From the IMG/VR virus record IMGVR_UViG_3300023172_000054, positions 1 to 44,630 of that record: a stretch of 44,630 bases of DNA; one strand, given 5' to 3'. The stretch's first letter is position 1. The number at the start of each line of letters is the position of its first letter. Shown one piece after another: positions 3,001-44,001 of the stretch. This DNA comes from a virus. The notes under the pieces are model-generated. The model did no database searches, was not told the DNA's origin, and worked only from the letters and a program-made list of their open reading frames with translations. Position numbers and translations under genes: made by a program.

Positions 3001-6000
3001 GTTGCAGTAAGTGGTATCACATTAGAAGATGGTTCAGGCAAACAATTAACAACACCAGCAAACTCTATTGAAATCTTAACTGGTCAACAAGTAAGAGCAA
3101 CTCTTGGAAATGTTACTGGTGCTACTGTTACGAATACAAGACATCACTTTGGTTCAATTGATTCGAGACAAGATGTACGCTCACCAATTTATTATGATTT
3201 AGATAATACAGGATATTTTGGAGACTTTGCTTCTCGTTCAAGATTTAATACTTTAGAATTAGGAAACCAAGGTGCTCTAACAGGTTCTACTTCATATCCA
3301 TTAGGAGTCTATCATAATAACAGATACTTAATTGGTTTCAGAAACAGTGGTGCTGATGCTAACTATCCTTGGTTAGTCCACGATAATGTCAATGGTAAAT
3401 CTGCATTTATTATTCACTTTAATGGTAAAGGCGATAGATTCTATGTTGATGAAGATGGTGATACAGTATTCTCAGGTGATATTACTGCAGACGAAATGTT
3501 TGCAAGAAGATTTGTAGATACAGATGATACGAACTTTTATGCTGATCCTGCAGGAACATCTAATTTTGCAAGACTAACATTACCACAAAACCCAGTCGGT
3601 ACCGCATACGCTAGTGTTGCAACACAACCTGACTATTATATTGGTCAGACAATGGGTAATGACGATGCTTGGAAGATCTACGGCGAATCACCAAGTGGAA
3701 CAAACACTGGCGCTCTCATCCTTCAATCTGAAGACGATTACGATGGTAATGAATCTATTCGTCATAGATTCAAGAGAACATACGGTGCTTACGACACGCG
3801 TGATAACTTAATCACATATTTTAACTATGTGTACTCACCAACAAGTTTCCGTGCTCCAATCTTCTACGATAGTAACGATACTAATTACTATGTAAATCCA
3901 GCATCTCAGTCACACATGAATACACTGACTCTTGCTGGTAATAGAATTGGTTTTATTAACTCAAGCTTTGATGCTGAAATTAGAGTATCTGATGCTAACC
4001 CAGATGGTACAGGTGCAACATTTGTATTCTGGGGAGATCAAGTAGAATATAATGCTGAAGTAGCAACTGAAGTATTCAGAGCAACAAGACATATGCGTGC
4101 TCCAATTTATTATGATTTAAATGATGCTAATTACTATTTAAATCCAAATGGTATTTCAATCTTAAACGATGTTCGTGCATCTATTTTCTATGATAGAAAT
4201 GATACAAACTATTATGTAAACCCGGCTTCAAATTCTATTCTACATAATTTAGAATTAAGAAATTACGGTTTAAGACTTGCGCGTAATTATACACACAATG
4301 GTATTTGGTTTAATGCCGGCACTGATACTAACCACGTATTGTGGAATGACTACTATGGTGGACCAAATGCTAGAGGTGCAGCTAACTCAGGATTTGATGG
4401 AATACTTTGGAATACTTATCGTGGTATTCAAATACGCGGTGGCTCTAATGGTGCATACAACTTAATTCGTTCTACAAATTCAGGTAGCAACACCAACGAT
4501 CACTATGTACAACTTTATGCTGCTAATGTTGAGCAATTAGGTACTCGTGCTGGTTATGGTTATGCTCCTAATCAGATGCGTTCACCAATTTATTACGACT
4601 ATAATGATACAAACTACTACGCTAATCCAGCTGGAACAACAAGATTCTATGAACAACGACTTATATACAGATTACATATTGGTGATGAGTCTAATTTATA
4701 TAATGGCGTACTTCAAGAAACACGTAGACCTGATTTAACAATTAAAGGACAATATCCTCAGTTGAACCTTATGTCATCTGAGATTAATAACAGTAATCAC
4801 GGTCCTACATTAAGATTTACAGCCTATGATTCGGCTAACGCATCTTCAGGTAACCTAAAACATTGGGTAATTGGTATTCCTGGTACAAATGCAACGATGT
4901 TGAGTTTTGGATATAGAGCAAATCCACCATCAAATAACCCACACTACGGTATTGGTAGAGGTTGGTCATCTGGTGATAATGTTGCTATTATGTGGCTACA
5001 AAATGATAGACACGTATATGCTGAAAACGACGTAAGAGCTGACATATTTAGAGATAGAAATTCTACTGGATACTATGTTGAGCCAAGCAATCTATCAGAA
5101 CTCTATGATGTAAGACAAAGAGGTTGGTACACAAGAACATTCGCACACTCAGGTTCTGATTTTGCAAATGGTACAATTGTAAGAACAAGTATTCCTGCGA
5201 CAGCAACTAACGGTGCTTCATTCGTACTTGAAGCAACAGGTAAATCTTATTCTGGTGATCCACCATTTAGTTTTATTGCACAAGGTTATTTGTACAATAA
5301 TACTATTATCAACTATTCTGGTCAACATTTTGGTAAAGCAGGATTTGGAACACTATATGCATTTGAAAATGGTGGAGTATTATGTTTCTGGTGGCCAAGA
5401 GTATCTTATTGGAACTCCTTCACTGTTCACGTAAGAAATGCAAATGGCGATGATAGAAACTTAGTTACAAGTATTTCAAACTCAACATTGCCAAGTTATA
5501 GTAAAGGCGTAGGCATTACTATGAAGACCACAGCCGTGTATAACCAAAATATTGGTTCCGGCGCAATGTATGCAACAATTTACTATGATGCTAACGATGC
5601 TGGCTATTACGCAGATCCTAATGGCAATTCACAATTCTCTAGATTGTATCTAAATGCAGATCTTAGAATGCAAGGTGGCGCGCCTATTTACTTCTACACA
5701 AGTTCAGGTTCCTTACGTGGATATATTCGTGCAACTGAAACTAATGATTCTCACTTTGAATTTGCTACATCAGGTGGAGAGGACTTCATCTTCCGTGATG
5801 GTGGATTCGGAGGTTCTTGGAATCAAATTATTCGCGGTAACGGTCAAGTATTAATTGCTAGTCGTCTTGATACACCGATTATCTATGATAGGAATAATAC
5901 TGGCTATTATGTTGACCCGAATGGTTCTACACAATTAAGAACAGTTTATGCTAATGATTGGTTTAGACCACAAGGTAACACCGGTCTTTATTTCCAATCT

Positions 6001-8472
6001 TATGGACATGGTTTATGGGCTCCTGAATCTGAAGGAAACTCATACGGTAACGTAGCTACATACGGTAGCGGTAGAAACGGTTGGAGAGGTTATGGATTAG
6101 GTTCACGTTGGGTATTAATGAGTACTGGTGGAGATAATATCGGTATTCATGATAACTCTAGAACTTGGATGTATTATTGGAATGGTAGTTATCACCAATA
6201 TAATTATGGTTATCTGCAAGCTCAAGGTTCTATGAGAGCGCCTATCTTCTATGATACCAATGACACTGGTTATTATTTCAATGGTGCTTCAGATAACAGT
6301 ACAAGATTCCGTGGTGTTAATAACCTAACAATGGCATTCATGGGTCTTTCTGGTCAAACAAGATCAAGTAAAGAATACTATGCAGCTAGACCTCGTATAA
6401 CAGGAGATACAAACTACTGGACTGGTTCAGTCGGTTGGAGCCGGGTAAATATGAACACGGTTGCCGACTGGGGTTCAGGCTTCTTTGATTCATGGAGTAA
6501 TCCACCTAACCAGCCTTCAGGTACATCACACTGGGTCGGTGTTCAAGCCTATCACTACACTAATGGTTCAGCAAGATACGGTTGGCAGCTGGCTGGTGGT
6601 CCTATCTCAGGATTGTGGTTCCGTAATACTTGGTCCGGCTTTAGTAGCTGGAAGAAAGTCGCGATGCATGGTGTTAATGAATATTCTGGTTCATTCTACG
6701 CATCCATTTACTACGATTCTGATAATACTGGTTATTATTGCGATCCAAATGGTACCTCAAGATTAAATGCGACTGATGCTAATGAACATTACACTTATGG
6801 TTGGTTCCGCAACAGAAACTCTGGTAATGGATTATATAACCAAGCTACCGCAATGCATTTCTACTCCAATAATGGATACTACAAGTATGCAGGTGGAGGC
6901 TATAGTTATGGTGGTCTAGTAGCATATAGAAACTACGAATCAGATTTAAGAGGTTATGCAGGATATTGGGACGGAAACGGTTTCGGTCTTCTTAATAGTT
7001 CTGGTAACTGGCAGGTTCGTATATTCTACGGAAATAGCCACATGGAGCTATACCGTGTTACATACATGAATGATGCTCGCGCATATATCTTCTACGATCG
7101 TAATAACACTGCATATTATGCTGACCCAAATGGTAATTCAAGATTTAATGTAACAAGAACAAATACGGCTTATGGTGGTAGTGATACTAATAAAGGTCGC
7201 TTGCAAGGATATGGAACATGGTCATCTGAATTCCATAAGATGGCTTACATATCATTCGACTGGAATGCTAACTATGATTATTACTACTATCATGGACTTT
7301 CCTCGACGGATATTAATGGTTCGTTTACAGATTCAATGTCACTTAACTCGTTTAATGACATTAACCTAAGACTTGACTCAAATAATAATAACGGAAACTC
7401 TTATGTACGTATTCACGACAATGGTTCTGGTAATTCACAGAACGTAGCATATATTGGTCGTGAAGGCGGAAACGCTATTGCATACTTCTATAATAGAGTT
7501 TATGGTTCTGTATTCTATGACCATGATAGTAGTTATTATGCTAATATGAATACCTGGTCTCGTTTCTGGGGTCTTGGAACATTCTATCTACGTAATAACT
7601 ATGATGTTTCAACTAACCACGAATATGGTGTAGCGTTCGCTAACAACCAATCAACTGCTTATCGTGTATATCGTGAAGGCGGTGGTTGGAGCTATCCATA
7701 TCCTGACTTACGTATCGCATTCCATACTGGTTTGAAATTTGGTGCTAACCCATCATATGAAGGTATGCGTTTCTATACTGATTATAACATGGCAAGCTTG
7801 GTATGGCAGTTCAACGGTGGTTCGAACTACTCTTACCAGTATCGTTGGAACAACTTAACTGGCTATCACGGTATTTACTCTGGTATTAACGGCGCTCACT
7901 TCTATCCTAACAACGCATCTTACGGTTCTTGGAGAGTTCAAGGTTCTCGTAACGGTTGGGGTGGTATGCAGTTTGATAACAACATCTGCTTGATGATGAA
8001 CTATACAGAGCATGGTTTCTATAGTACATCGTTTGGTTGGAGATTATATCTAAACGGTTCAGTATATACACCAGGTAACGTTGTTGCTTATTGGTCAGAT
8101 AGAAGATTGAAAGAAAATATTCAAGAACTTCCAAGAGGTGAAGGTCTTGATACGATCATGAAACTGAAACCAAGTCGATTTAATTGGAAGAAAGAAGCCG
8201 AACAAGTAACAGCTGGTGTTATTGAAGGTGGAATGGAAGAAGTCGCTGTTATTGCTCAAGAAACACAAGATGTAATACCTAATTCTGTAGTTATAAATAA
8301 AGCTGGTAACGGCGGCAAAGACAAAATTATGGTTGATGGTGAGGAGCTTAAAGACTTCCTCACAGTTAACTATGACAAGATTACACCATTCTTAATACAA
8401 GCAGTTAAAGACTTAAAATCAGAATTAGATGAATTGAGAGAAGAAGTAAAATTTTTACGAGGAGACAAATAG
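1..8472 (+). CDS. Giant tail fibre with YD-repeat modules and C-terminal S74 chaperone (5' end outside window)
   Basis: The reading frame is open from base 1, so this is the last 2823 residues of a longer protein. I count about 21 copies of a short module of the form IFYDxNNTxYYxDP, at roughly nt 94, 301, 541, 1234, 1456, 1755, 2198, 2548, 3181, 3502, 3853, 4099, 4179, 4581, 5038, 5572, 5872, 6238, 6700, 7078 and 7504. They are separated by glycine/asparagine/tyrosine-rich beta-type spacers of unequal length. The C-terminus (nt about 8090-8472) has WSDRRLKENI followed by a coiled coil (LKSELDELREEVKFLRG). That is the peptidase S74 intramolecular chaperone domain of endosialidases, which trimerises a fibre and then cleaves itself off before the Ser; the S-x4-K spacing fits the Ser-Lys dyad. 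The probable role is a long host-recognition fibre. Spacers vary more than modules, as expected for receptor-binding diversification. An internal ATG at 301 is not the true start. Confidence 0.9.
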   Translation, partial: QFFTDGTQRLEINGTFITGAVDGFFPNLYAGRYYDSGNATYYVDPASSSRLNDISLVGEIIHDGDADTYLQFNAADSFRVVTGGSQRLLVNNTYVLANDQMRSPIFYDSNNTAYYGNFAGTSVMNDIGLDDYIAHNGDTDTYIGFPNNDEFVISTGGTIRFTANTSAITSTLSITAPTMYAGIYYDSDNNDYYFDGSSTTTSLTAAGKILIGNVSDADRTDDNTGDGGITIQPNAAGTNSNIQISGSNGGAALLNLNRIDIGNNPTNASNVYLQFNADGTAGGQFRGDASGNLYQVLKASTNWGFWTSGYTEALIVDDSANVMVNNSTGPTYTANDNTPLIGATTDNKLHVGGSVQLASLDDAFVVGNGTATFLKGDELGFGSGGGFYMDNTTTVKIRNNKDFSSNGDFYASTYYDVDNTNYYVDPAGDSQMNTIDIDDYIRHRGDTNTYFGFEANDTFRVWTNGVQRLNIDNDSADFQGNVYAPRYYDSDDNTFFIDGDGTSVLKYLNVYSGATTGELNVGRSSSERIRQYITDGIGYIQYWQDETDTTDHSLRFEILSTSTGTNTFQFNRPIQITGGGGGMYASIYYDQDDNRYYLDPNATGNAGSNAGFFGGNLSFGLPGNGTASNAEAQKGRWLSIEGNADTSGEGSSRIFFTEHNSSTGSMSAYGMSLGYRGGATSIVGSDGNTWTGLTQINNGEWGMWGHDGSATGQWAMKGPRSGSFVVASGSFRAPIFYDSNNTNYFVDPNSESRMDTIKLDGNAVVLREPTGDYGSFAVSGGARNGYSGFSIDDRFVFMHDGANRVGVYNDVDNEWIWYADRNSYMRLMYNGGEQARTDNGYFRANNQLRTPIFYDLNNTAFYVDPNNTSNIQNLIVNGTFEQGGYLQNNPVESYWYQQSTYSYSTSQTPNTQYYWIPVGVTNNGGAKGFLEYYAKDDVNYSGNVIGRIVISSWNSSSISIDHHTTGPLNNGTPKVRVDNNNRIWMQMDSITWDSYVRWHWVAVSGITLEDGSGKQLTTPANSIEILTGQQVRATLGNVTGATVTNTRHHFGSIDSRQDVRSPIYYDLDNTGYFGDFASRSRFNTLELGNQGALTGSTSYPLGVYHNNRYLIGFRNSGADANYPWLVHDNVNGKSAFIIHFNGKGDRFYVDEDGDTVFSGDITADEMFARRFVDTDDTNFYADPAGTSNFARLTLPQNPVGTAYASVATQPDYYIGQTMGNDDAWKIYGESPSGTNTGALILQSEDDYDGNESIRHRFKRTYGAYDTRDNLITYFNYVYSPTSFRAPIFYDSNDTNYYVNPASQSHMNTLTLAGNRIGFINSSFDAEIRVSDANPDGTGATFVFWGDQVEYNAEVATEVFRATRHMRAPIYYDLNDANYYLNPNGISILNDVRASIFYDRNDTNYYVNPASNSILHNLELRNYGLRLARNYTHNGIWFNAGTDTNHVLWNDYYGGPNARGAANSGFDGILWNTYRGIQIRGGSNGAYNLIRSTNSGSNTNDHYVQLYAANVEQLGTRAGYGYAPNQMRSPIYYDYNDTNYYANPAGTTRFYEQRLIYRLHIGDESNLYNGVLQETRRPDLTIKGQYPQLNLMSSEINNSNHGPTLRFTAYDSANASSGNLKHWVIGIPGTNATMLSFGYRANPPSNNPHYGIGRGWSSGDNVAIMWLQNDRHVYAENDVRADIFRDRNSTGYYVEPSNLSELYDVRQRGWYTRTFAHSGSDFANGTIVRTSIPATATNGASFVLEATGKSYSGDPPFSFIAQGYLYNNTIINYSGQHFGKAGFGTLYAFENGGVLCFWWPRVSYWNSFTVHVRNANGDDRNLVTSISNSTLPSYSKGVGITMKTTAVYNQNIGSGAMYATIYYDANDAGYYADPNGNSQFSRLYLNADLRMQGGAPIYFYTSSGSLRGYIRATETNDSHFEFATSGGEDFIFRDGGFGGSWNQIIRGNGQVLIASRLDTPIIYDRNNTGYYVDPNGSTQLRTVYANDWFRPQGNTGLYFQSYGHGLWAPESEGNSYGNVATYGSGRNGWRGYGLGSRWVLMSTGGDNIGIHDNSRTWMYYWNGSYHQYNYGYLQAQGSMRAPIFYDTNDTGYYFNGASDNSTRFRGVNNLTMAFMGLSGQTRSSKEYYAARPRITGDTNYWTGSVGWSRVNMNTVADWGSGFFDSWSNPPNQPSGTSHWVGVQAYHYTNGSARYGWQLAGGPISGLWFRNTWSGFSSWKKVAMHGVNEYSGSFYASIYYDSDNTGYYCDPNGTSRLNATDANEHYTYGWFRNRNSGNGLYNQATAMHFYSNNGYYKYAGGGYSYGGLVAYRNYESDLRGYAGYWDGNGFGLLNSSGNWQVRIFYGNSHMELYRVTYMNDARAYIFYDRNNTAYYADPNGNSRFNVTRTNTAYGGSDTNKGRLQGYGTWSSEFHKMAYISFDWNANYDYYYYHGLSSTDINGSFTDSMSLNSFNDINLRLDSNNNNGNSYVRIHDNGSGNSQNVAYIGREGGNAIAYFYNRVYGSVFYDHDSSYYANMNTWSRFWGLGTFYLRNNYDVSTNHEYGVAFANNQSTAYRVYREGGGWSYPYPDLRIAFHTGLKFGANPSYEGMRFYTDYNMASLVWQFNGGSNYSYQYRWNNLTGYHGIYSGINGAHFYPNNASYGSWRVQGSRNGWGGMQFDNNICLMMNYTEHGFYSTSFGWRLYLNGSVYTPGNVVAYWSDRRLKENIQELPRGEGLDTIMKLKPSRFNWKKEAEQVTAGVIEGGMEEVAVIAQETQDVIPNSVVINKAGNGGKDKIMVDGEELKDFLTVNYDKITPFLIQAVKDLKSELDELREEVKFLRGDK

Positions 8473-34251: not shown

Positions 34252-34259
34252 TATAAATA
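34252..34259 (+). promoter_or_regulatory. T4-type late promoter box before curli-type operon
   Basis: A perfect TATAAATA lies 50-57 bases before the first ATG of the ten-gene operon at 34309, in a divergent intergenic region. No sigma70 consensus is seen on this strand here, so late expression is expected. Confidence 0.7.
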
Positions 34260-34308: not shown

Positions 34309-34605
34309 ATGGAATCTATACTCCAGCTAATAGCTGATTTAGGCTTACCTATAGCAGGTGCATTAGTAATGGGAGCATTCCTCTTTATTATTATTAAACA
34401 AATTTTTGAAGGAATAGTTGATAGCATTAATACGTTGAATATGTTCTGTGAAAGCCTAGAAAACAGAGCGAGAACTATGTCAAATGAGATGGTTAAAATA
34501 GATTTACTCGTTTCTAGCGCACTTGGATTAAATCCTGATATTGAGCGAATTGCTCGAGCGGAAAATTTTATAGAAGACGGAAAACTCGACGTAAGGAGAG
34601 ATTAA
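34309..34605 (+). CDS. Holin-like membrane protein, paralogue 1
   Basis: A 98-residue protein with AAAAGGATA upstream. It has one N-terminal membrane segment (about residues 11-32, LPIAGALVMGAFLFIIIKQIF), then an amphipathic helical region. It is alignable with the protein at 34807: xGxPxxxxxxxGxFxxxxxxxIxExIxxxIxxx, then RxRxMxxxxxxIxxLV, then IER. Size and topology fit phage holin or spanin-like helpers, but curli operons do not normally contain such genes. First gene of the operon; its stop touches the next start. Function is uncertain. Confidence 0.7.
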   Translation: MESILQLIADLGLPIAGALVMGAFLFIIIKQIFEGIVDSINTLNMFCESLENRARTMSNEMVKIDLLVSSALGLNPDIERIARAENFIEDGKLDVRRD

Positions 34606-34817
34606 TGCTATATTGTGGTTATCATTTCACGGTAATACCCGGTGGAGATTTACTAATATTTGACGAATCTGACGGTGAATTAACACTAGAAAAATTGAAT
34701 TGGAAAGCTGGTGATAAATTTGTTGCGATGGAACATTACAACGGTGCCGCCGCTTTGATAAGGACTAATAGGAAACCATATAATCCAAAACAATTGGATT
34801 TGTTCGATGGAATTTGA
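34605..34817 (+). CDS. 70-residue soluble protein ending in a clamp-binding-like QLDLF motif
   Basis: AAGGAGAG precedes the ATG, which overlaps the preceding stop by one base. The product is a small beta-rich domain (VIPGGDLLIFDESDGELTLEKLNWKAGDKFVAME), followed by a basic linker and KQLDLFDGI. QLDLF matches the canonical beta-sliding-clamp-binding pentapeptide. Whether this is functional is unknown. It sits between the two holin-like paralogues and overlaps the second. Confidence 0.65.
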   Translation: MLYCGYHFTVIPGGDLLIFDESDGELTLEKLNWKAGDKFVAMEHYNGAAALIRTNRKPYNPKQLDLFDGI

Positions 34818-35082
34818 TATAGTTACTGCCGTATCTGAATATGGCTTTCCTACAGTGATGGTAATTGGTTTAGGATATTTTGTGTATTTTGTGTGGAATT
34901 TTATAAACGAAAATATTATTCCTACAATAGATAAAATGCACATGCAACTTATCAAAGTAATTGATCGCATGAGAATGTTAGATCAAGACCTCATTCGTTT
35001 ACAACAAAAAGTAGATGTCGTATTAAAATATAGAGAAATTGAAAGATTAAAAGAGGATTCTAAAAATAATGAAAAAAACTGA
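34807..35082 (+). CDS. Holin-like membrane protein, paralogue 2
   Basis: A 91-residue protein with a membrane segment at about residues 13-35 (GFPTVMVIGLGYFVYFVWNFI), then a helical, coiled-coil-prone tail (MRMLDQDLIRLQQKVDVVLKYREIERLKED). It is a paralogue of the first gene of the operon. Start overlaps the preceding gene by 11 bases and its end overlaps csgF by 14 bases, so these genes are tightly coupled. It could form inner-membrane oligomers feeding or gating the secretion system, or act as a pinholin; both are speculative. Confidence 0.7.
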   Translation: MEFDIVTAVSEYGFPTVMVIGLGYFVYFVWNFINENIIPTIDKMHMQLIKVIDRMRMLDQDLIRLQQKVDVVLKYREIERLKEDSKNNEKN

Positions 35083-35599
35083 TGATAGAGGTTTACTTGC
35101 TATTGGTTGGGTAATACTTATTACATATCTTTTACTTGCAACAGGAAAAGTATATGGTGAACCTATAGTACAAAAATTTAAAAATCCATCATTCAGCGGA
35201 ATTGGAACTGGTGCTCATTATTTAACTATTGAGAACCAAGAATTTAGTAGAAAGAAACAAATCGAAGATGCAATGGAAGCTGCAAGAAAGGCAGCAGAAC
35301 GAGAAGCAGATAATACAATTTTAGCAAAGTTTATAAGAAATCTTGAAAGCAGGATTTATGCTCAATTAGCAAAACAGTTAGTAGACAATATGTTCTCTAA
35401 TGATAATCCTGTAAGGTATGGATCCTTTGTATTGGAAGGATCAACAGTAACATATGAAGTAATTACAAACACAGATGGTACTGAATATATTAAGATGACG
35501 ATTGTCGGGGAAGATGGGACAACGACCGTGATTGAAATACCTATTGGTAGTGGTAACTTCGGCGGAGGAACTGATGACTCGAATCCTGACGGCGGTTAG
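35069..35599 (+). CDS. csgF: CsgF-like curli assembly factor
   Basis: A 176-residue protein with AGAGGA upstream. A hydrophobic leader (about residues 9-30, ending GKVYG) gives export. The mature start PIVQKFKNPSFSGIGTGAHYL matches the conserved CsgF N-terminus (FxNPxFGG...GxxLL) that plugs into the CsgG channel. This is followed by a helical segment (about 60-110, with NFIRxLESRIYAQLAKQL-type pattern) and a beta-rich end (GSFVLEGSTVTYEV, ...IVGEDGTTTVIEIPIGSG) as in CsgF. It is longer than E. coli CsgF (138) because of an extra charged helix and a Gly/Asp tail. CsgF couples the outer-membrane channel to nucleation of curli fibres at the cell surface. csgG overlaps it by 26 bases. Confidence 0.88.
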   Translation: MKKTDDRGLLAIGWVILITYLLLATGKVYGEPIVQKFKNPSFSGIGTGAHYLTIENQEFSRKKQIEDAMEAARKAAEREADNTILAKFIRNLESRIYAQLAKQLVDNMFSNDNPVRYGSFVLEGSTVTYEVITNTDGTEYIKMTIVGEDGTTTVIEIPIGSGNFGGGTDDSNPDGG

Positions 35600-36488
35600 T
35601 CTATTACTTCTTATTACAGGTTGTGCATCTATTCCGCAATGGAATGAAAATCCTGGTCAATGTGAATATGGTAAAGGTAAATATTCAGAAGGATTTGGAA
35701 GAGACGTTTATACAGGCGTAAGAAAGTTTTATGCACAACAATTAATATGCGCAGATAATCCTGAAGTTGTAAGATTACCATCTTATATAGAATTATTAAA
35801 TTTACCGCCAGCCGAACAAATGCCGGTGGTTGCTGTATATAACTTTTTAGATAAAACAGGACAACGTAAAGATTCAGTCACAGGACAAAGTTTCTCCACT
35901 GCGGTAACACAAGGTGGAACAGAATTATTAATTGATGCACTCAAAACTGCAGGAGATGGTAAATGGTTTAGAGTTGCTGAAAGACAAGGGATTGATGCTC
36001 TTGTTAGAGAAAGACAAATTATTCGTAGTGGTCGAGAAGAAGCCGCAAAGATAACTGGAGAAGATGCTCCAAATCTTGGACCACTTTTATTCGCAGGAAT
36101 GATAATTGAAGGCGGTATTATTGGATATGATAGTAACTTAAGAACGGGCGGTATCGGAGCAAGGACGCTAGGATTAGGTATTACTCGTCAATATAGACAA
36201 GATCAAGTTACTATTTCATTAAGAGCAGTATCAGTTTTAACTGGTGAAGTATTACTTAATGTACAAACGAAAAAAACAATTTTAAGTTATGGTGCCGGAG
36301 GCGATGTTTTTAGATTCATCGAGCAGGGAACGCAGTTGATTGAATATGAAGACGGTGTAGGAAATAATGAAAGTGTGACGTATGCAGTACGAACAGCAAT
36401 TGAAGCTGCCGTATTGGAAATGGTTTATCAAGGAGATCGTCGTGGTTTCTGGAAAATAAACAAACAAAATAACGGGGAAGAAGAATGA
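35574..36488 (+). CDS. csgG: CsgG-like curli secretion channel lipoprotein
   Basis: A 304-residue protein. The ATG at 35574 is chosen because GGAGG lies 5 bases upstream and it yields a clean lipoprotein signal (LLLLITGC, Cys17). Conserved CsgG blocks are VVAVYNFLDKTGQRK, SFSTAVTQGGTELLIDAL, WFRVAERQGIDALVRERQIIR, MIIEGGIIGYDSNLRTGGIGARTLGLG, YRQDQVTISLRAVSVLTGEVLLNVQTKKTILSY, DVFRFIEQGTQLIEYEDGVGNNESVTYAVRTAIEAAV and DRRGFWK. The protein forms a nonameric outer-membrane pore for curlin export. Odd points: an extra ~50-residue insert after the lipobox with two cysteines, and loss of two of three constriction residues. It lies between csgF and a curlin-repeat gene. Confidence 0.95.
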   Translation: MTRILTAVSLLLLITGCASIPQWNENPGQCEYGKGKYSEGFGRDVYTGVRKFYAQQLICADNPEVVRLPSYIELLNLPPAEQMPVVAVYNFLDKTGQRKDSVTGQSFSTAVTQGGTELLIDALKTAGDGKWFRVAERQGIDALVRERQIIRSGREEAAKITGEDAPNLGPLLFAGMIIEGGIIGYDSNLRTGGIGARTLGLGITRQYRQDQVTISLRAVSVLTGEVLLNVQTKKTILSYGAGGDVFRFIEQGTQLIEYEDGVGNNESVTYAVRTAIEAAVLEMVYQGDRRGFWKINKQNNGEEE

Positions 36489-37216
36489 TTAAAAAACTAT
36501 TAGGCCTAAGTTTAGTTTTTGTTTCTACTTTCGCATTTGCGCAAGCAACGGACGATAACGAAATCAATATTGACCAACAAGGTGATACATTGACTTTATA
36601 TATTGACCAATATGGATATGGAAACAAAGTTGGAGGAGATAACGCTTCTTCAGGATCAGTTTCAGCAATGTCTATTATTGGTGCAACTTTGAATATTGAC
36701 ATTAATCAAATTGGTAATAGCAATTTGCTTTTTGGTCCTATTACATTAGACAGTTCAACAATAGATCTTACTTGGACTGGAGATAGTAATAGTTGGGATT
36801 GGAACATTGGTTATGTTGGTTCATCAGATTCAGCAAACATTTTGTCTGATATAACTGGTGATAGCAACACTATGGATTTCGATCTAGGTTATAACGCAAG
36901 TGCCGAGAGATTGGATTTTGATTTATCTGTTCTCGGTTCAACTAACGTATTTGATATTGACATTGATGTTGATGATGCGATTTGGAACTTCGATATTACT
37001 GGAGATTCAAATAACATTAACACAATGCAAAAAGATGGTGCTGAGCACGAAATCAATATGACTCACGTTGGAGATAGTGCCGATATAGATATCAATCAAT
37101 TAAGTGGAACATGTCCTACAGGTGTATCAACCTGTAATGGGATTATAACTTTAGACATTGATTCTGACAATGCTACTATCCAGATTAATCAAAAAGATTC
37201 GTCTAACGATACTTAG
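36485..37216 (+). CDS. Secreted curlin-repeat protein 1 (candidate amyloid subunit)
   Basis: A 243-residue protein with a standard signal peptide (MIKKLLGLSLVFVSTFAFAQA). The mature part is Asp/Asn/Ser/Thr-rich and contains curlin-type repeats: NEINIDQQGDTLTLYIDQYGYGNKV (about 25-49), ATLNIDINQIGNSN (about 67-80) and ADIDINQLSG (about 199-208), TIQINQKDS at the end, plus degenerate ITGDSNNINTMQ and LTWTGDSNSWDW units. The NxxxIxQxGxxN pattern is that of CsgA/CsgB. A long Trp/Asp-rich central part departs from canonical CsgA. Start overlaps csgG by 4 bases, GGGGAAG upstream. A disulfide is possible (CPTGVSTC). Likely the substrate of the adjacent CsgG channel. Confidence 0.8.
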   Translation: MIKKLLGLSLVFVSTFAFAQATDDNEINIDQQGDTLTLYIDQYGYGNKVGGDNASSGSVSAMSIIGATLNIDINQIGNSNLLFGPITLDSSTIDLTWTGDSNSWDWNIGYVGSSDSANILSDITGDSNTMDFDLGYNASAERLDFDLSVLGSTNVFDIDIDVDDAIWNFDITGDSNNINTMQKDGAEHEINMTHVGDSADIDINQLSGTCPTGVSTCNGIITLDIDSDNATIQINQKDSSNDT

Positions 37217-38321
37217 TGTTTTCACTTTGTTGCCATTGGGTTTGTCTGCAGCAGACCCAATTGGCAATATTGTTGAACACACAGGAACTGGTTCTATTAC
37301 AAGAGAAGCAGGTGCAACTCTTGAGGTGTCAGACCAACAAGTACCTGACATTGTCATTAATGATACGGCCGAAACTGAGAATGGCCGAATGCTTATCGAA
37401 TTCTTAGATAAAGCAGAACTCAGTCTTACCGAAAATACAAAAGTATACATTGATAGCGTATACTACGATCCTGATCCAAGTAAATCCAAAATGGCAATGC
37501 GTATGGCATTAGGCACTGCACGATTTGCATCAGGTCGTTTGGGTATGGTAAATAAAAGTAATATAGACATACAAACACCTACTGCAAGTATTGCGGTACG
37601 CGGAACAGATTTCACAACCACCATAGATGAGCTTGGAAGATCACTGGTCATACTTTTACCAGATCAATATGGTAATCCATCAGGAACAATTGAAGTATCT
37701 AATTTAGGAGGTACGATTACTTTAGAAGAAGCTTATGCAGCAACAATGGTTTCTACATTAGATGATCCGCCAACAAGACAGATTAATATTTCAAATATAA
37801 CAGCAAATGTTATTGATAATATGTTCATTGTGTCTCCACCTCCTGAAGTAAAAAGAGCATTAGAAGAAGAATATAACGATGAAAATAATGATGATCAAGG
37901 ATTGCTTGATGTTGACTTTTTAGAATTTAACGAATTAGAATATGATGCATTAGCGGAAGACGAATTAGAATTTTCAGAACTTGATATTGATTTTTTAGAT
38001 GTAGATTTTCTTGTTGATTTATTAAATGTAATTGATGATCTCGTAAAAACAACAGCTTCATTAGATGATAGTGCAGTATCAAATAATGCGATGGGCGCAG
38101 AATTAAAAGGTGCAGGATTTGGTTTAAATTCAGATTCTCAATATAACATTTATGAAGATAACGGTAAAATAATTTTTTATCGTTTGGCAAATGGAAAGAT
38201 TCAATTAGCATTTGCCGTAGATGCTTCAGTAAAAGTAAATACAGAAGTAGAAGGATATAGTGGGATCATTGATCTAAATGGCGGTAATAACTCAACAGTA
38301 ATTATAAGACAGGGTGGATAA
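37170..38321 (+). CDS. Secreted FecR-domain protein with curlin-like C-terminal tail
   Basis: A 383-residue protein from the ATG at 37170 (a TTG at 37158 is the alternative); both read through the end of the preceding gene. A basic N-region and hydrophobic stretch end at LGLSA, a probable signal peptide. The FecR domain spans about residues 32-155: IGNIVEHTGTGSITREAG, GRMLIEFLDKAELSLTENT, MRMALGTARFASGRLGMVN, IDIQTPTASIAVRGTDFTT. A very acidic Leu/Phe/Asp region (about 230-290) follows, then a beta-rich tail ending GIIDLNGGNNSTVIIRQGG, which resembles a curlin repeat. FecR-domain proteins with CHASE2 cyclases are frequent gene neighbours in bacteria. The tail could dock to the amyloid. Confidence 0.8.
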   Translation: MLLSRLIKKIRLTILSVFTLLPLGLSAADPIGNIVEHTGTGSITREAGATLEVSDQQVPDIVINDTAETENGRMLIEFLDKAELSLTENTKVYIDSVYYDPDPSKSKMAMRMALGTARFASGRLGMVNKSNIDIQTPTASIAVRGTDFTTTIDELGRSLVILLPDQYGNPSGTIEVSNLGGTITLEEAYAATMVSTLDDPPTRQINISNITANVIDNMFIVSPPPEVKRALEEEYNDENNDDQGLLDVDFLEFNELEYDALAEDELEFSELDIDFLDVDFLVDLLNVIDDLVKTTASLDDSAVSNNAMGAELKGAGFGLNSDSQYNIYEDNGKIIFYRLANGKIQLAFAVDASVKVNTEVEGYSGIIDLNGGNNSTVIIRQGG

Positions 38322-38329
38322 ATAAGTTT

Positions 38330-39070
38330 ATGGACGAATTTGATAGAAAATTAGATAAATGGTTATTAGGATTTAGTTGGTGCCTATTAGGAATGTATTT
38401 TCTTTTGGCAGCCGGTAAAGCCTATGCAGATAATGAAATCACAATAGAACAGACTGGTGACAATTTTGATCTAAATATAACACAAATAGGTTATAGCAAT
38501 ATCATTAAACAATGGTCATCAACAGAAGGAATAGATGGTGCAGACAATACTATCTCTATTGCACAAAATAAGAACTATGGTAGTTCTACTGATAAAAACA
38601 TCATAGAGATTCGTAGAGTTTGGGGAATAGGAAACGATCTAAAACTTGCTCAAGGATATATCATTAATGGAGACGGAAGTTTTTCTATAGACAATGATGA
38701 ATATGGTGATACCTTTGCTCATATCAATGTCACTGGTGATTACAACAATATAGAAATGACTCAACGAACAAACAGTACTTCTTCAGGTCATTGGTATGGT
38801 TTACATATTGAAGGAGATTATAATGATATATCTACTATTCAAAGAGAAGGTGGTGGACATACATTAGATTTAGATATTTACAATGATGGTAATATTGTTG
38901 ATGTTGTTCAAAAGAATAGTGGAAGTCATTATGCATGGATAAGACTTGATGGAACATACGGAACTGATATAACACTTTTACAAGATTCGACTTTAAATAA
39001 ATCATATTCACTCAATCAAACCTGTTATACTGTAGGTGGTTGTAGTGTATCAGTAACGCAGGGCCAATAA
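38330..39070 (+). CDS. Secreted curlin-repeat protein 2
   Basis: A 246-residue protein. The N-terminus (KLDKWLLGFSWCLLGMYFLLAAGKAYA) is an export signal similar in layout to that of the CsgF homologue (LLxxGW...YLLLAxGKxY). Curlin-type repeats follow directly: NEITIEQTGDNFDLNITQIG, NTISIAQNK, NNIEMTQRTN, NDISTIQREG, NIVDVVQKN and CSVSVTQGQ at the end, each with the NxIxxxQ core. It is Asn/Asp-rich, with two cysteines near the end. It may be the nucleator (CsgB-like) partner of curlin 1; which is subunit and which nucleator cannot be decided. Stop overlaps the next start (TAATG). Confidence 0.8.
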   Translation: MDEFDRKLDKWLLGFSWCLLGMYFLLAAGKAYADNEITIEQTGDNFDLNITQIGYSNIIKQWSSTEGIDGADNTISIAQNKNYGSSTDKNIIEIRRVWGIGNDLKLAQGYIINGDGSFSIDNDEYGDTFAHINVTGDYNNIEMTQRTNSTSSGHWYGLHIEGDYNDISTIQREGGGHTLDLDIYNDGNIVDVVQKNSGSHYAWIRLDGTYGTDITLLQDSTLNKSYSLNQTCYTVGGCSVSVTQGQ

Positions 39071-41109
39071 TGAAATGGTTAACAAAGTGGTGGACAGTAT
39101 TAATAACAATTGCTGGATTTGCAACCTTATCAATTTCTAATCCAAACTTTATTCAAAGTATAGAATATGCATATTATGACTATCTTCAATCAGAACAAGA
39201 AAAAATACAATCAACCGATATTGTCCTCGTCAACATTGACGAAAGAGCTATCGCAGCTGAAGGCCAATATCCGTGGCCTCGGGATATTGTTGCTAAGTAC
39301 CTTAATAACAATTCTCCTAATTCTCTTTATGTCTTAAATATGATCTATTCCGAATCTGATAGGTTCGGAGGAGATAATCAACTTGCAGAAGCAATGGCAC
39401 AAAAAGCTGTTGTATTATCTTCTGCTCCTACTCAACAAACATCAGATGGAGTTGGCACCTTTGTTGGTGTTGCTACCTTTGGAGAACAAAATGAAAATTG
39501 GCTTTATGAATTTCCAGGATTATTGTACCCTATTCAACCTCTTGCTGATTACGCTTTTGGTGTTGGTGCCACCGTTGCTGTTCCTGATGAACCAACAGGA
39601 GTTGTGCGTAGAGCACCACTCGTGGTCAGAGCAGCCGGGAATCCCTATCCATCTCTCGCACTCGATACATTACGAGTGTTCACAGGAGAACCCAGTTATC
39701 AAATGAAAGTAGGTCCACTCGGAGTTGAGTGGATTCGTATGGGTCGTCAAGATCCTATCACAACAAATAGTTTTGCCGAAATACCAATTGCTTTCTGGAA
39801 CGAATTTGAACAAGTAAGTATACTTGATCCTTTACCAGATGGAAAGGTATTAATATTTGGTATTACAGCAGAAGGATATGCTAATCCAGTCGCAACCCCA
39901 ACGGGTGCAAAGTATCCTCACGAAGTTCAAGCACACCTGGTTCAGACCGTCCTTTCAGGAGTTGAAATACAGATTCCCGACTGGCAGCCAATAGTCGAGC
40001 TGCTTCTTCTGGTCTTACTGAGTCTAGGTATCCTTGGAGCGGTCTATATTTTGCCCACAATTCTTGGATTGACAACGAGTTTATTTCTGCTCGCTTCCTC
40101 TTCATTAATATCATATTATTTATGGACTGATTCGCTGCTATTCGTTGACGCCACAATGAGTTCATTTGCTTCCTTAGTAGTATTTGCTCAATCAAGTTTT
40201 AACAAGTATTTTATCACGTTTTTAGAGAAACGTCAACTAGCAAAACAATTTGCTGGGTATGCTTCTCCTACAGTCGTTCGTTTACTCCAAGAGAATCCTT
40301 CTCTCGTTAAAGAGGGAATGAAAAAAGAAATTAGTATTTGTTTTTCTGATTTAAGAGGATTTACACCTTTAGGTGAAAGCTTTGGAGATGACGTACAAGG
40401 ATTAACGAAATTAATGAATGGATATATGGATTCAATCACTGAGCCTGTCCTTAACGCTGATGGAATGATTATTAAATATATAGGCGATGCGTCGATGCAC
40501 ATCCACAACGCACCTATAGAAGATCCTGACCACCCTAAAACTGCTGTTCAAACTGGATTGAACATGCTTAAATCTGTAGAAGAATTTAATAAAAAGATTA
40601 TTGCTGAAGGAAGACCACCAATTGGTATGGGTGCCGGTATTAATACTGGTCTCGGATATCTTGGTGAAATGGGTTCTACAGAGCGACATAGTTATGATGT
40701 TCTTGGAGATGCAGTATCAACAGCAGCACGAATAGAATCTAAATGTAAAGAATATGGTTGTTTGCTTTTAGTAGGTGGCGCAACTGTTGAAAGATGTCGA
40801 AATGACTTTTTCTTTTTGAAAGTAGATGATCTTGCTGTAAAGGGCAAATCAGTAGGCATTGAGATATACACAGTTTTAGATTTAAATAAGGATAAATATA
40901 TTAAACCGGCTGAGATGCATGAAGCTATGCATATGAATTATAGAAAACAAAACTTTGATAAAGCCATAAAAATATGTAATGATTTAATGGAATGTTTTGA
41001 AGGTCAGATGGCTGGATATTATACCATGTGGATAGAGCGTTGTGAATATATGAAAACGCAAGATCTACCCAAAGATTGGGACGGGATTTTCATTGCGACT
41101 ACTAAATAA
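39070..41109 (+). CDS. CHASE2 membrane sensor with class III adenylate cyclase domain
   Basis: A 679-residue protein. A membrane segment at about 8-22 is followed by a periplasmic CHASE2 domain (about 30-300: YDYLQ, VLVNIDERAI, QYPWPRD, GFG/AxxD blocks), three membrane segments (about 308-327, 329-350, 352-372), then a cyclase domain (about 415-605). Visible catalytic residues are metal-binding Asp427 (CFSDLRGFT) and Asp473 (YIGDASM), purine-selecting Lys469 and Asp543 (SYDVLGD, adenine type), and Arg554. The transition-state Asn expected in GDxVNxAAR is Ser550. A C-terminal helical extension (about 610-660) resembles a TPR-like tail. It probably senses an envelope signal and makes cAMP. Last but one gene of the operon; a cyclase in a phage is unusual. 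Confidence 0.93.
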   Translation: MKWLTKWWTVLITIAGFATLSISNPNFIQSIEYAYYDYLQSEQEKIQSTDIVLVNIDERAIAAEGQYPWPRDIVAKYLNNNSPNSLYVLNMIYSESDRFGGDNQLAEAMAQKAVVLSSAPTQQTSDGVGTFVGVATFGEQNENWLYEFPGLLYPIQPLADYAFGVGATVAVPDEPTGVVRRAPLVVRAAGNPYPSLALDTLRVFTGEPSYQMKVGPLGVEWIRMGRQDPITTNSFAEIPIAFWNEFEQVSILDPLPDGKVLIFGITAEGYANPVATPTGAKYPHEVQAHLVQTVLSGVEIQIPDWQPIVELLLLVLLSLGILGAVYILPTILGLTTSLFLLASSSLISYYLWTDSLLFVDATMSSFASLVVFAQSSFNKYFITFLEKRQLAKQFAGYASPTVVRLLQENPSLVKEGMKKEISICFSDLRGFTPLGESFGDDVQGLTKLMNGYMDSITEPVLNADGMIIKYIGDASMHIHNAPIEDPDHPKTAVQTGLNMLKSVEEFNKKIIAEGRPPIGMGAGINTGLGYLGEMGSTERHSYDVLGDAVSTAARIESKCKEYGCLLLVGGATVERCRNDFFFLKVDDLAVKGKSVGIEIYTVLDLNKDKYIKPAEMHEAMHMNYRKQNFDKAIKICNDLMECFEGQMAGYYTMWIERCEYMKTQDLPKDWDGIFIATTK

Positions 41110-41644
41110 ATTACTTATCGGATTACTTTTTTTAAGTTTTCCAGTATATGCAGGGTACACTGATATACAAAGAGTAATGTTTGAAGCAGGTTATACTGCA
41201 CCATACAATGACGAATATGTTCAAAGAGTTATTATAGGTCAAGCAAGAATAATGCCTAATGGCTCAATTGTTAATTTACCACATCCATCTCACATTCAAT
41301 CAACATTAATTTTTCCTGAATTTAAAATAACAGAGGAGGAACCTGCCAGCTTAGCCACCTGGACGATCTTTTTTCTCGTTCAAGCTGCAGATATCTGGTC
41401 TACCAAAAAAGCCCTCGCTTACGATTGTGTATATGAATTGAATCCTTTATTACCAAGAGTGCCAGAGATACATGAAATGGTACTTCTTAAAACAGCAATA
41501 TTTGGATCTATATTACCAGAGATTCAAAAAAGACAAACAATCACAAATGAAATCTTGATGCCTACACTTATGTTAACTTCTGTTGTTGTTCACAGTAATC
41601 TTAGAGTACTCGAAAAAGCAAAAAAACATTGTAATAAAAGATAA
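41093..41644 (+). CDS. Secreted/membrane DUF5658-like protein (TTG start)
   Basis: A 183-residue protein. The start is a TTG at 41093, overlapping the cyclase gene by 17 bases, with GGGA upstream. It is preferred over later ATGs because only it gives the signal peptide (RLLNKLLIGLLFLSFPVYAG). The C-terminal half is a membrane unit with FLVQAADIWSTKKALAYDCVYELNPLLP, close to the QxxDxxTTxxAL...ExNPxL pattern of DUF5658 proteins, then MVLLKTAIFG and a final hydrophobic stretch. Function is unknown. Last gene of the operon, followed by a hairpin. Confidence 0.7.
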   Translation: MRLLNKLLIGLLFLSFPVYAGYTDIQRVMFEAGYTAPYNDEYVQRVIIGQARIMPNGSIVNLPHPSHIQSTLIFPEFKITEEEPASLATWTIFFLVQAADIWSTKKALAYDCVYELNPLLPRVPEIHEMVLLKTAIFGSILPEIQKRQTITNEILMPTLMLTSVVVHSNLRVLEKAKKHCNKR

Positions 41645-41664
41645 GGGACCCTTTCGAGTCCCTT
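41643..41664 (+). terminator. Terminator-like hairpin ending the curli-type operon
   Basis: AAGGGAC and GTCCCTT form a 7-base perfect stem round an 8-base loop, overlapping the stop codon region. The downstream T run is weak (GCTGTTT). It resembles the gp23 terminator sequence (AGGGA...TCCCTT). Confidence 0.6.
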
Positions 41665-42849: not shown

Positions 42850-44001
42850 TTATACTCCTATTGTTGAACTTTCATAAACTTGATTGTGCGTTTGAGTGCA
42901 GCGAACAAAGGTTGTACATTTACTTAAATTTTTAAGCTTTTCTGCACCAGCATATGTACACGCACTACGTAAACCACCTAGAATGTCCTGTACTGTATTA
43001 AGTACTGGTCCTTTATATGGTACCACCACTGTACGACCTTCTGAGGATCTGTAGTCTTTAAGACCACCAAAGTGTTTATCATTAGCAGACTTAGAACTCA
43101 TACCATAAAACTCTACAAATTGTTTCTCAATACGTTTACCAATCCCCGCGGACGTAGCGGGCGCCTGCACGTTTGAAATAATAGATTCAGTAATTACATT
43201 ACCACCACCTTCATCATGTCCTGCGAGCATTCCACCCAACATTACAAAATCTGCTCCTGCGGCAAATGCCTTTGCTACATCACCAGGTGATACACAACCA
43301 CCATCAGCAATAATATGTCCACCAAGACCATGTGCAGCATCAGCGCATTCAATGACCGCTGAAAGTTGAGGATAACCCACACCAGTTTGAATACGAGTAG
43401 TGCAAACACTACCAGGTCCAATTCCAACTTTAACAATATCTGCTCCACTCAGTATAAGTTCTTCTGTCATTTCACCAGTTACAACATTACCAGCAATAAT
43501 CACAATATGTGGTGCTTTTTCTCTTAGTGTTGCGATATAGTCTCTAAAACGATTACTATATCCATTGGCAACATCTACACATACATACTTAATTGCTTCT
43601 CGGTCATGTTGATATACTTCAATAAACTTAGTAAGCTCTTCAATTGAAATACCCATGCTATATGCACAGTGTTCTGTACGAAGAATTTTTCCTGAATTAA
43701 AGAATTTAATTAGATCTTCTTTAGAATAAGTTTTTACAAGACAGGTAAACAATCCATGTTTCGAAAGTACATCTGCCATTTCAAATGTACCAACTCCATC
43801 CATGTTCGAAGCCATAATAGGAATACCACGATAATCTGGCATTTCAGGTCGTAAAGCATTCATACTCATTTCATAATGCTCAGAATTCCTATAATTAAAC
43901 TCACGATATAGATCTACTTCTTTTCTGCTTCCAAGTGTTGATCTTTTTGGACGAATCAAAACATCTTTATAGTCAAGTTTGATTTCATTATCAATACGCA
44001 T
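42850..44001 (-). CDS. guaC: GMP reductase (GuaC-like)
   Basis: A 383-residue protein, close to bacterial GMP reductase (E. coli about 347). It shares KLDYKDVLIRPKRSTLGSR, PIMASNMDGVGTF, CVDVANGYS, AGNVVTGEMTEELILSGADIVKVGIGPGS, VCTTR (catalytic Cys200), GVGYPQLSAVIECADAAHGLGG, DGGCVSPGDVAKAF, ADFVMLGGMLAGH, FYGMSS and ILGGLRSACTYAGA. GVGYPQ and the single-domain length without CBS modules favour GMP reductase over IMP dehydrogenase. It converts GMP to IMP with NADPH, feeding adenine nucleotides. It differs by an insert of about 24 residues near 268-295 and an N-terminal insert near 43-57. It is an auxiliary metabolic gene in an early-type operon. Confidence 0.93.
   Translation of the reverse strand: MRIDNEIKLDYKDVLIRPKRSTLGSRKEVDLYREFNYRNSEHYEMSMNALRPEMPDYRGIPIMASNMDGVGTFEMADVLSKHGLFTCLVKTYSKEDLIKFFNSGKILRTEHCAYSMGISIEELTKFIEVYQHDREAIKYVCVDVANGYSNRFRDYIATLREKAPHIVIIAGNVVTGEMTEELILSGADIVKVGIGPGSVCTTRIQTGVGYPQLSAVIECADAAHGLGGHIIADGGCVSPGDVAKAFAAGADFVMLGGMLAGHDEGGGNVITESIISNVQAPATSAGIGKRIEKQFVEFYGMSSKSANDKHFGGLKDYRSSEGRTVVVPYKGPVLNTVQDILGGLRSACTYAGAEKLKNLSKCTTFVRCTQTHNQVYESSTIGV

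What the first reader, a model, noticed from the sequence alone, without database searches (positions are those of the whole stretch)
36485..39070. Two divergent curlin-repeat proteins as candidate phage-encoded amyloids
Both have export signals and repeated NxxxIxQ units, but the units are irregular and mixed with Trp/Asp/Gly-rich spacers unlike CsgA. Having two suggests a subunit/nucleator pair. Their position beside csgFG makes them the likely cargo.
Basis: partly seen in the sequence, partly recalled or inferred. Interest (0 to 1): 0.8.

Follow-up and report, generated by a model that had tools for sequence, protein, structure and literature searches.

The report
Late, phage-encoded curli secretion cassette
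A marine T4-like virus of bacteria carries a complete-looking kit for exporting curli-type fibre proteins; the kit was already known from related marine phages, but the data here add that it is probably switched on late in infection and that one of its two fibre proteins is repeatedly swapped between phages.

Summary
The two proteins are real and curlin-like, but this is largely already published. Curlin A (36485-37216) and curlin B (38330-39070) are secreted paralogues (profile-profile E 3e-15), both predicted as two-sheet beta-solenoids (pLDDT 82). They sit in a cassette tm1-tm2-csgF-csgG-curlinA-FecR-curlinB-CHASE2-cyclase that recurs in about 80 viral contigs. Zaragoza-Solas 2020 and a 2022 mSystems pelagiphage paper already reported phage curli cassettes, the latter with CsgA/B, FecR and cyclase. 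The literal NxxxIxQ repeat is significant only in B; A carries GDSN-type turns. Four points I did not find in the papers read: (1) a T4-type late-promoter element TATAAATA lies upstream of the first cassette gene in 36 of 53 distinct loci and almost never upstream of the others, implying one late operon; (2) curlin B is replaced as an allele between near-identical flanks in at least four lineages while A is conserved, so B looks like an exposed, variable component rather than a simple nucleator; (3) the same core order exists in a Hyphomonas chromosome, so FecR and cyclase are not phage-only additions; (4) the 'histidine kinases' are 91-98 aa membrane proteins without kinase domains. Amyloid formation and function remain untested.

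The parts
34252..34259 (+). T4-type late promoter element TATAAATA, 49 nt before the first gene of the cassette
   Evidence: same element upstream of the first cassette gene in 36 of 53 distinct relatives, expected about 0.009 per 120 nt
34309..34605 (+). tm1: 98 aa, one hydrophobic stretch plus a charged conserved tail; phrog_18771; called 'histidine kinase' in the literature, but no kinase domain found
34807..35082 (+). tm2: 91 aa, second member of phrog_18771
35069..35599 (+). CsgF homologue (extracellular cap of the pore)
   Evidence: Pfam PF10614 E 6e-13
35574..36488 (+). CsgG homologue, outer-membrane pore lipoprotein (lipobox LITGC; ATG at 35574, mechanical TTG start at 35532)
   Evidence: Pfam PF03783 E 1.1e-53; NCBIfam CsgG E 1.7e-53 but below equivalog cut-off
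36485..37216 (+). curlin A: secreted, conserved beta-solenoid subunit, 243 aa
37158..38321 (+). FecR-domain protein with signal sequence; C-terminus ends in an IxIxQ strand in 52 of 52 relatives (homology to curlin not significant). 37158 is a mechanical TTG start; the true start is probably a little downstream
38330..39070 (+). curlin B: secreted beta-solenoid protein, 246 aa, conserved ends and variable middle; allele exchanged between phages
39070..41109 (+). CHASE2 plus class III nucleotidyl cyclase, membrane receptor
   Evidence: Pfam CHASE2 E 2.4e-30, Guanylate_cyc E 3e-16; catalytic Asn replaced by Ser in GDAVSTAARIES
41093..41644 (+). DUF5658-like protein, last gene of the run; present in most relatives

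Best explanation
This is a phage-borne curli-type (type VIII) secretion cassette, transcribed as one late operon. Shown by sequence: a late-promoter element precedes the first gene; CsgF and CsgG homologues, two secreted curlin paralogues, a secreted FecR protein and a CHASE2 cyclase follow in a conserved order; A is conserved, B is exchanged by recombination. Inferred: late in infection Sec exports A and B to the periplasm, and they leave through the CsgG pore capped by CsgF. There they fold into stacked beta-arches on or near the cell surface. A is the main structural subunit. B shares A's conserved first repeat, joins the same assembly, and presents a variable solenoid body outward. The periplasmic FecR protein and the CHASE2 cyclase probably form a sensor pair reporting envelope or secretion state. 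The late timing favours a role at or after lysis (holding virions, debris or neighbouring cells together, 'sibling capture', or shaping the lysed envelope) over an early role in nutrient uptake.
For: Cassette conservation in about 80 viral loci; in the 63 loci complete from csgG to the cyclase, A is present in 63 and B in 61 by score, with a B-like secreted ORF in the other two. A and B are paralogues, hhalign 98.5%, E 3e-15, reversed control 0.3%. AF2 models: pLDDT 82.1 and 81.7, pTM 0.77 and 0.75, about 16 short strands each; the VIA-align second look gives two-sheet beta-helices SufB/SufD at Z 16-17; the B profile's best PDB hit is the curlin R15.5 chain 8c50, E 0.089. Purifying selection on A (dN/dS about 0.06-0.23). 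Late element TATAAATA upstream of tm1 in 36/53 and upstream of the other cassette genes in 0-1 of 44-56; in the window it also precedes the sheath gene and several other genes. Allele exchange of B: the body of curB falls to 42-78% nucleotide identity per 100-nt window between flanks of mostly 90-100% (lower flanks in the most diverged pair) in four lineages; B's ends are more conserved than its middle.
Against: No biochemical evidence of amyloid. Curlin_rpt scores are at or below the Pfam cut-off for the window's own proteins (the separate search of the parent record G492 gives 22.5 bits for A). Foldseek E-values are all above 0.1 and no curlin structure appears among the matches listed. Handedness of models from shallow alignments is unreliable (PMC10192328). 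CsgE is absent in all eight phage records searched. Melnitz cultures showed no clumping (PMC9004378). The late element is a consensus match, not a mapped start site. The cyclase here lacks the usual catalytic Asn, so its activity is doubtful.
Confidence: 0.6

Rival explanations
1. The csgG/csgF pore is the working part, used as a lysis or leakage device late in infection; A and B are passengers or plugs rather than fibre subunits.
For: Proposed for Melnitz (PMC9004378). The late promoter fits a lysis role. tm1 has a weak holin-like PHROG match (E 0.008).
Against: A and B are kept in 63 and at least 61 of 63 complete cassettes, and A is under purifying selection. Both have signal peptides. That paper stated csgA/csgB were absent from Melnitz, yet its own record annotates two curlin repeat proteins.
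Confidence: 0.15
2. A and B are secreted monomeric beta-solenoid adhesins or surface coats (not amyloid), exported by CsgG to coat the host cell or released virions; B's variation reflects target or antigen specificity.
For: Only the first repeat of each is canonical QX10Q; later repeats are degenerate, acidic and rich in Asp, Gly and Trp (A net charge -34). Allele exchange of B is typical of exposed proteins. The fold is shared with many non-polymerising solenoids.
Against: Curlin homology and the CsgF/CsgG context; degenerate curlins are a described class (PMC10192328).
Confidence: 0.2
3. B is a CsgB-like nucleator and A the CsgA-like subunit.
For: Two paralogues of similar length with a shared first repeat.
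Against: A nucleator that must template A is expected to be conserved with A, but B changes to 37-63% protein identity while A stays at 87-98% in the same pairs.
Confidence: 0.12

Closest known systems
Pelagiphage type VIII secretion (curli) module (PMC9599517; PMC7029224; HTVC008M, Melnitz)
   Same: Same gene order: two small membrane genes, csgF, csgG, curlin, FecR, second curlin, adenylate cyclase; no CsgE.
   Different: Phage backbone: portal only 45-50% identical to the other cassette-bearing T4-like phages outside its own group, and nearest among isolates to Sinorhizobium phage phiM12 at 53.6%, while CsgG is 62-75% identical to most of the uncultivated ones and 47% to HTVC008M. Late promoter, B exchange and a bacterial counterpart are not mentioned in the passages read.
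csgFG-curlin-FecR-CHASE2 cyclase operon in Hyphomonas sp. TMED17 (NHBW01000006.1, L090)
   Same: csgF, csgG, curlin-like 504-aa protein, FecR, CHASE2 cyclase in that order, with bacterial genes on both sides.
   Different: One long curlin instead of two, no tm1/tm2; FecR lacks the C-terminal IxIxQ strand.
E. coli CsgA/CsgB
   Same: Sec signal, first repeat with QX10Q kernel, partner of CsgG/CsgF; A matches the CsgA model at E 2.4e-5.
   Different: Later repeats degenerate with long insertions; two cysteines near the C-terminus, conserved in nearly all relatives; no csgE.
FecR-LysM / CHASE2 kinase biofilm operon of Burkholderia (PMC5192318)
   Same: Secreted FecR protein paired with a CHASE2 receptor in a biofilm-related operon.
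   Different: Receptor output is a histidine kinase, not a cyclase; no curli genes mentioned.

Membership tests
Curlin subunits (CsgA/CsgB) | Curlin repeats above the Pfam PF07012 cut-off | tested here: inconclusive
   Window A 19.5 bits (cut-off 20.7) and B 14.1 bits; 22.5 bits for A in the separate search of the parent record; 33/38 A and 20/38 B relatives match at E<=0.01
Curlin subunits (CsgA/CsgB) | Beta-solenoid of stacked strand-arc-strand units | tested here: met
   AF2 pLDDT 82, pTM 0.75-0.77; two-sheet beta-helix matches, Z 16-17 at about 3 A over about 190-200 residues. Solenoid fold only; no curlin structure was listed
Curlin subunits (CsgA/CsgB) | Sec signal and linkage to csgG/csgF | tested here: met
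   Sequence
Curlin subunits (CsgA/CsgB) | Amyloid fibre formation | not testable with these tools
   Needs purified protein
CsgA/CsgB subunit-nucleator pair | B nucleates A | not testable with these tools
   Indirect sign against: B alleles are exchanged independently of A
Pelagiphage curli module | Gene order csgF-csgG-curlin-FecR-curlin-cyclase | tested here: met
Pelagiphage curli module | Histidine kinase(s) upstream | tested here: not met
   Upstream proteins are 98 and 91 aa, no kinase domain in Pfam or NCBIfam, only phrog_18771
Canonical gammaproteobacterial T8SS | CsgE gate | tested here: not met
   No PF10627 match in 8 phage records; E. coli control positive
FecI/FecR anti-sigma pair | FecR domain with its cytoplasmic anti-sigma part and a partner sigma factor | tested here: inconclusive
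   Only PF04773 found and the protein starts with a signal sequence; the rest of the phage was not searched for ECF sigma factors

The most novel reading that the evidence does not exclude
A lytic phage builds, at the end of infection, a surface curli-like assembly whose exposed component (B) is diversified by allele exchange, so that cells lysed by one phage type carry a type-specific extracellular matrix. This would be a virus-encoded matrix under recognition-type selection, with a phage-encoded CHASE2-FecR sensor reading its export.
Probability: 0.2. Interest if true: 0.85.

Novelty: new member of a known kind. Interest (0 to 1): 0.5.

Why it matters
Viral curli genes are widespread in the ocean, but published reports leave their function open and give conflicting accounts of whether fibre subunits exist. 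Late timing and the exchange of only one of the two curlins narrow the hypotheses and can be tested in cultured phages (HTVC008M, Melnitz). If fibres form, this would be a phage-encoded functional amyloid with a dedicated exporter.

Tried and rejected
FecR C-terminus as a curlin repeat: the IxIxQ ending occurs in 52/52 FecRs and in none of the CsgG, CsgF, cyclase or tm2 control sets, but profile-profile comparison with A and B is no better than reversed controls and Pfam finds no curlin repeat there; kept only as a motif. PDB sequence search with the A profile: nothing; with B, only a marginal curlin hit. Foldseek: no significant match; no curlin chain listed, which excludes nothing. Other alphaproteobacteria with the phage-type FecR: only the Hyphomonas genome stood out, 184 bits against 106 for the next. 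Donor direction from the CsgG tree: the Hyphomonas row is a long branch, so direction is unresolved. 'Bacterial' hits L083-L089 and L091 look like phage contigs binned with bacteria. Sigma-70 promoter scan: no excess over shuffles. No intrinsic terminator called on the + strand at the end of the operon; the hairpin at 41643-41664 lacks a T run on that strand.

Full report
Setting. The window is a T4-like myophage: terminase, sheath, portal, scaffold and gp23 are recognised. It is identical in CsgG and portal to a 137,426-base viral record. Its portal is 78-84% identical to two other records with the cassette, 45-50% to the rest, and closest among isolates to Sinorhizobium phage phiM12 at 53.6%. 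It is therefore not a close relative of the cultured pelagimyophages, and its host is unknown.

What is there. From 34309 to 41644 all genes of the cassette run on the + strand, mostly overlapping or abutting: tm1, tm2, csgF, csgG, curlin A, FecR, curlin B, CHASE2 cyclase, DUF5658-like.

Are they curlins? A starts with a repeat NEINIDQQGDTLTLYIDQYGYGN, B with NEITIEQTGDNFDLNITQIGYSN; each contains the QX10Q spacing that Sleutel and colleagues use to define the curlin kernel (PMC10192328; positions). After that the repeats degenerate. Literal NxxxIxQ is above chance in B only; A has GxxN/GDSN turns and strong hydrophobic alternation. Pfam and NCBIfam agree at the family level. A and B are paralogues. 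AlphaFold2 with 38 relatives each gives all-beta solenoids with pLDDT 82, close to the mean of 83 reported for bacterial curlins. The structural second look lists two-sheet beta-helices such as SufD at Z 16-17, which supports the fold and nothing more.

What was already known. Zaragoza-Solas 2020 (PMC7029224) reported csgF and csgG in pelagimyophages and proposed 'sibling capture'. The Melnitz paper (PMC9004378) proposed a lysis pore and reported no clumping. The 2022 pelagiphage paper (PMC9599517) identified CsgA/B, FecR, adenylate cyclase and 'histidine kinases' in podo- and myophages and inferred transfer between viral families. The finding is therefore a new example of a published module.

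New point 1, late operon. The T4 late element TATAAATA occurs seven times in the window, all on the + strand; six lie about 30-61 nt before a gene, among them the sheath gene and tm1. The total of seven is not above chance for this AT-rich sequence (mean 6.8 in shuffles); the placement is what stands out. Across relatives the element lies within 120 nt upstream of tm1 in 36 of 53 distinct sequences and upstream of the other cassette genes in 0-1 of 44-56; about 0.009 would be expected per 120-nt stretch. The 2020 paper reports that late promoters could not be predicted in its genomes. Late transcription is an inference from the element.

New point 2, exchange of curlin B. In pairs of cassettes with nearly identical flanks, curB alone is far more diverged, also at synonymous sites: L036/L044 (B 45% protein identity, dS 1.1; A, FecR, CsgG and cyclase 95-98%, dS about 0.1), L005/L010 (B 63%, dS 1.3, against 0.15-0.30), L065/L072 (B 49%, with a smaller dip inside FecR), L046/L063 (B 37%, in a more diverged pair). 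Nucleotide identity drops close to the start and end of the gene and recovers on either side. B's first repeat and last 50 residues are more conserved than its middle. This is the pattern of an exposed protein with conserved docking ends.

New point 3, bacterial counterpart. A 705-kb Hyphomonas contig holds csgF, csgG, a 504-aa curlin-like protein, FecR and a CHASE2 cyclase in the same order, flanked by ordinary bacterial genes. The 2022 abstract says the histidine kinase and adenylate cyclase are not within bacterial T8SS operons, and its discussion adds FecR. This case shows that FecR and cyclase can be, although only this one genome stood out among about 490 alphaproteobacterial genomes searched. 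It comes from a metagenome-assembled genome and the direction of transfer is unresolved.

New point 4, annotation. The upstream 'histidine kinases' are two membrane proteins of one PHROG family, 98 and 91 aa, without kinase domains.

Mobility. Cassette proteins are more alike than portals across distant T4-like backbones (CsgG about 70-73% against portal 46-48% for L029, L033, L040 and L044), which fits horizontal movement of the module, as published for podo/myo families.

Mechanism. Shown: gene content, order, homology, conservation pattern, promoter element. Inferred: export through CsgG/CsgF, assembly outside the cell, A as main subunit, B as variable partner, FecR-CHASE2 as a sensor pair (a FecR/CHASE2 pair in a biofilm-regulating operon is described in Burkholderia). 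Not shown: amyloid, location, timing, function.

Noticed in passing
L036, L044, L058, L065, L035, L007 and others, upstream of tm1: In 20 of 53 distinct sequences exactly 5 nt separate TATAAATA from the ATG of tm1. If the T4 late start-site rule holds, the late mRNA would begin at the AUG and be leaderless. The window has a 49-nt spacing instead.
   Followed up: partly
window 39070-41109: The cyclase has Ser where class III cyclases have the catalytic Asn (GDAVSTAARIES); one subtype of the viral cyclases shares this, another keeps Asn.
   Followed up: partly
window 37158-38321, C-terminus: All 52 viral FecR proteins end in a strand [ILV]x[ILV]xQ like the last strand of curlins A and B; the Hyphomonas FecR does not. 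Homology is not significant.
   Followed up: yes
L083-L089, L091: Phage cassette contigs appear inside public bacterial metagenome-assembled genomes (labelled Flavobacteriales, Synechococcus, Saprospirales, Planctomycetaceae and others), probably misbinned.
   Followed up: no
L002 (Melnitz) 5025-7819: The Melnitz record annotates two curlin repeat proteins and a FecR protein although the paper states csgA/csgB are missing.
   Followed up: yes
window 301-8472: 2723-aa protein ending in an endosialidase-type chaperone (Peptidase_S74), probably a tail fibre.
   Followed up: no
window 42850-44001 (-): IMP dehydrogenase/GMP reductase homologue on the opposite strand beside the cassette.
   Followed up: no
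OR851715.1: A 1499-base unannotated 'Salmonella phage' record encodes a CsgG 43% identical to this one; possibly host DNA.
   Followed up: no
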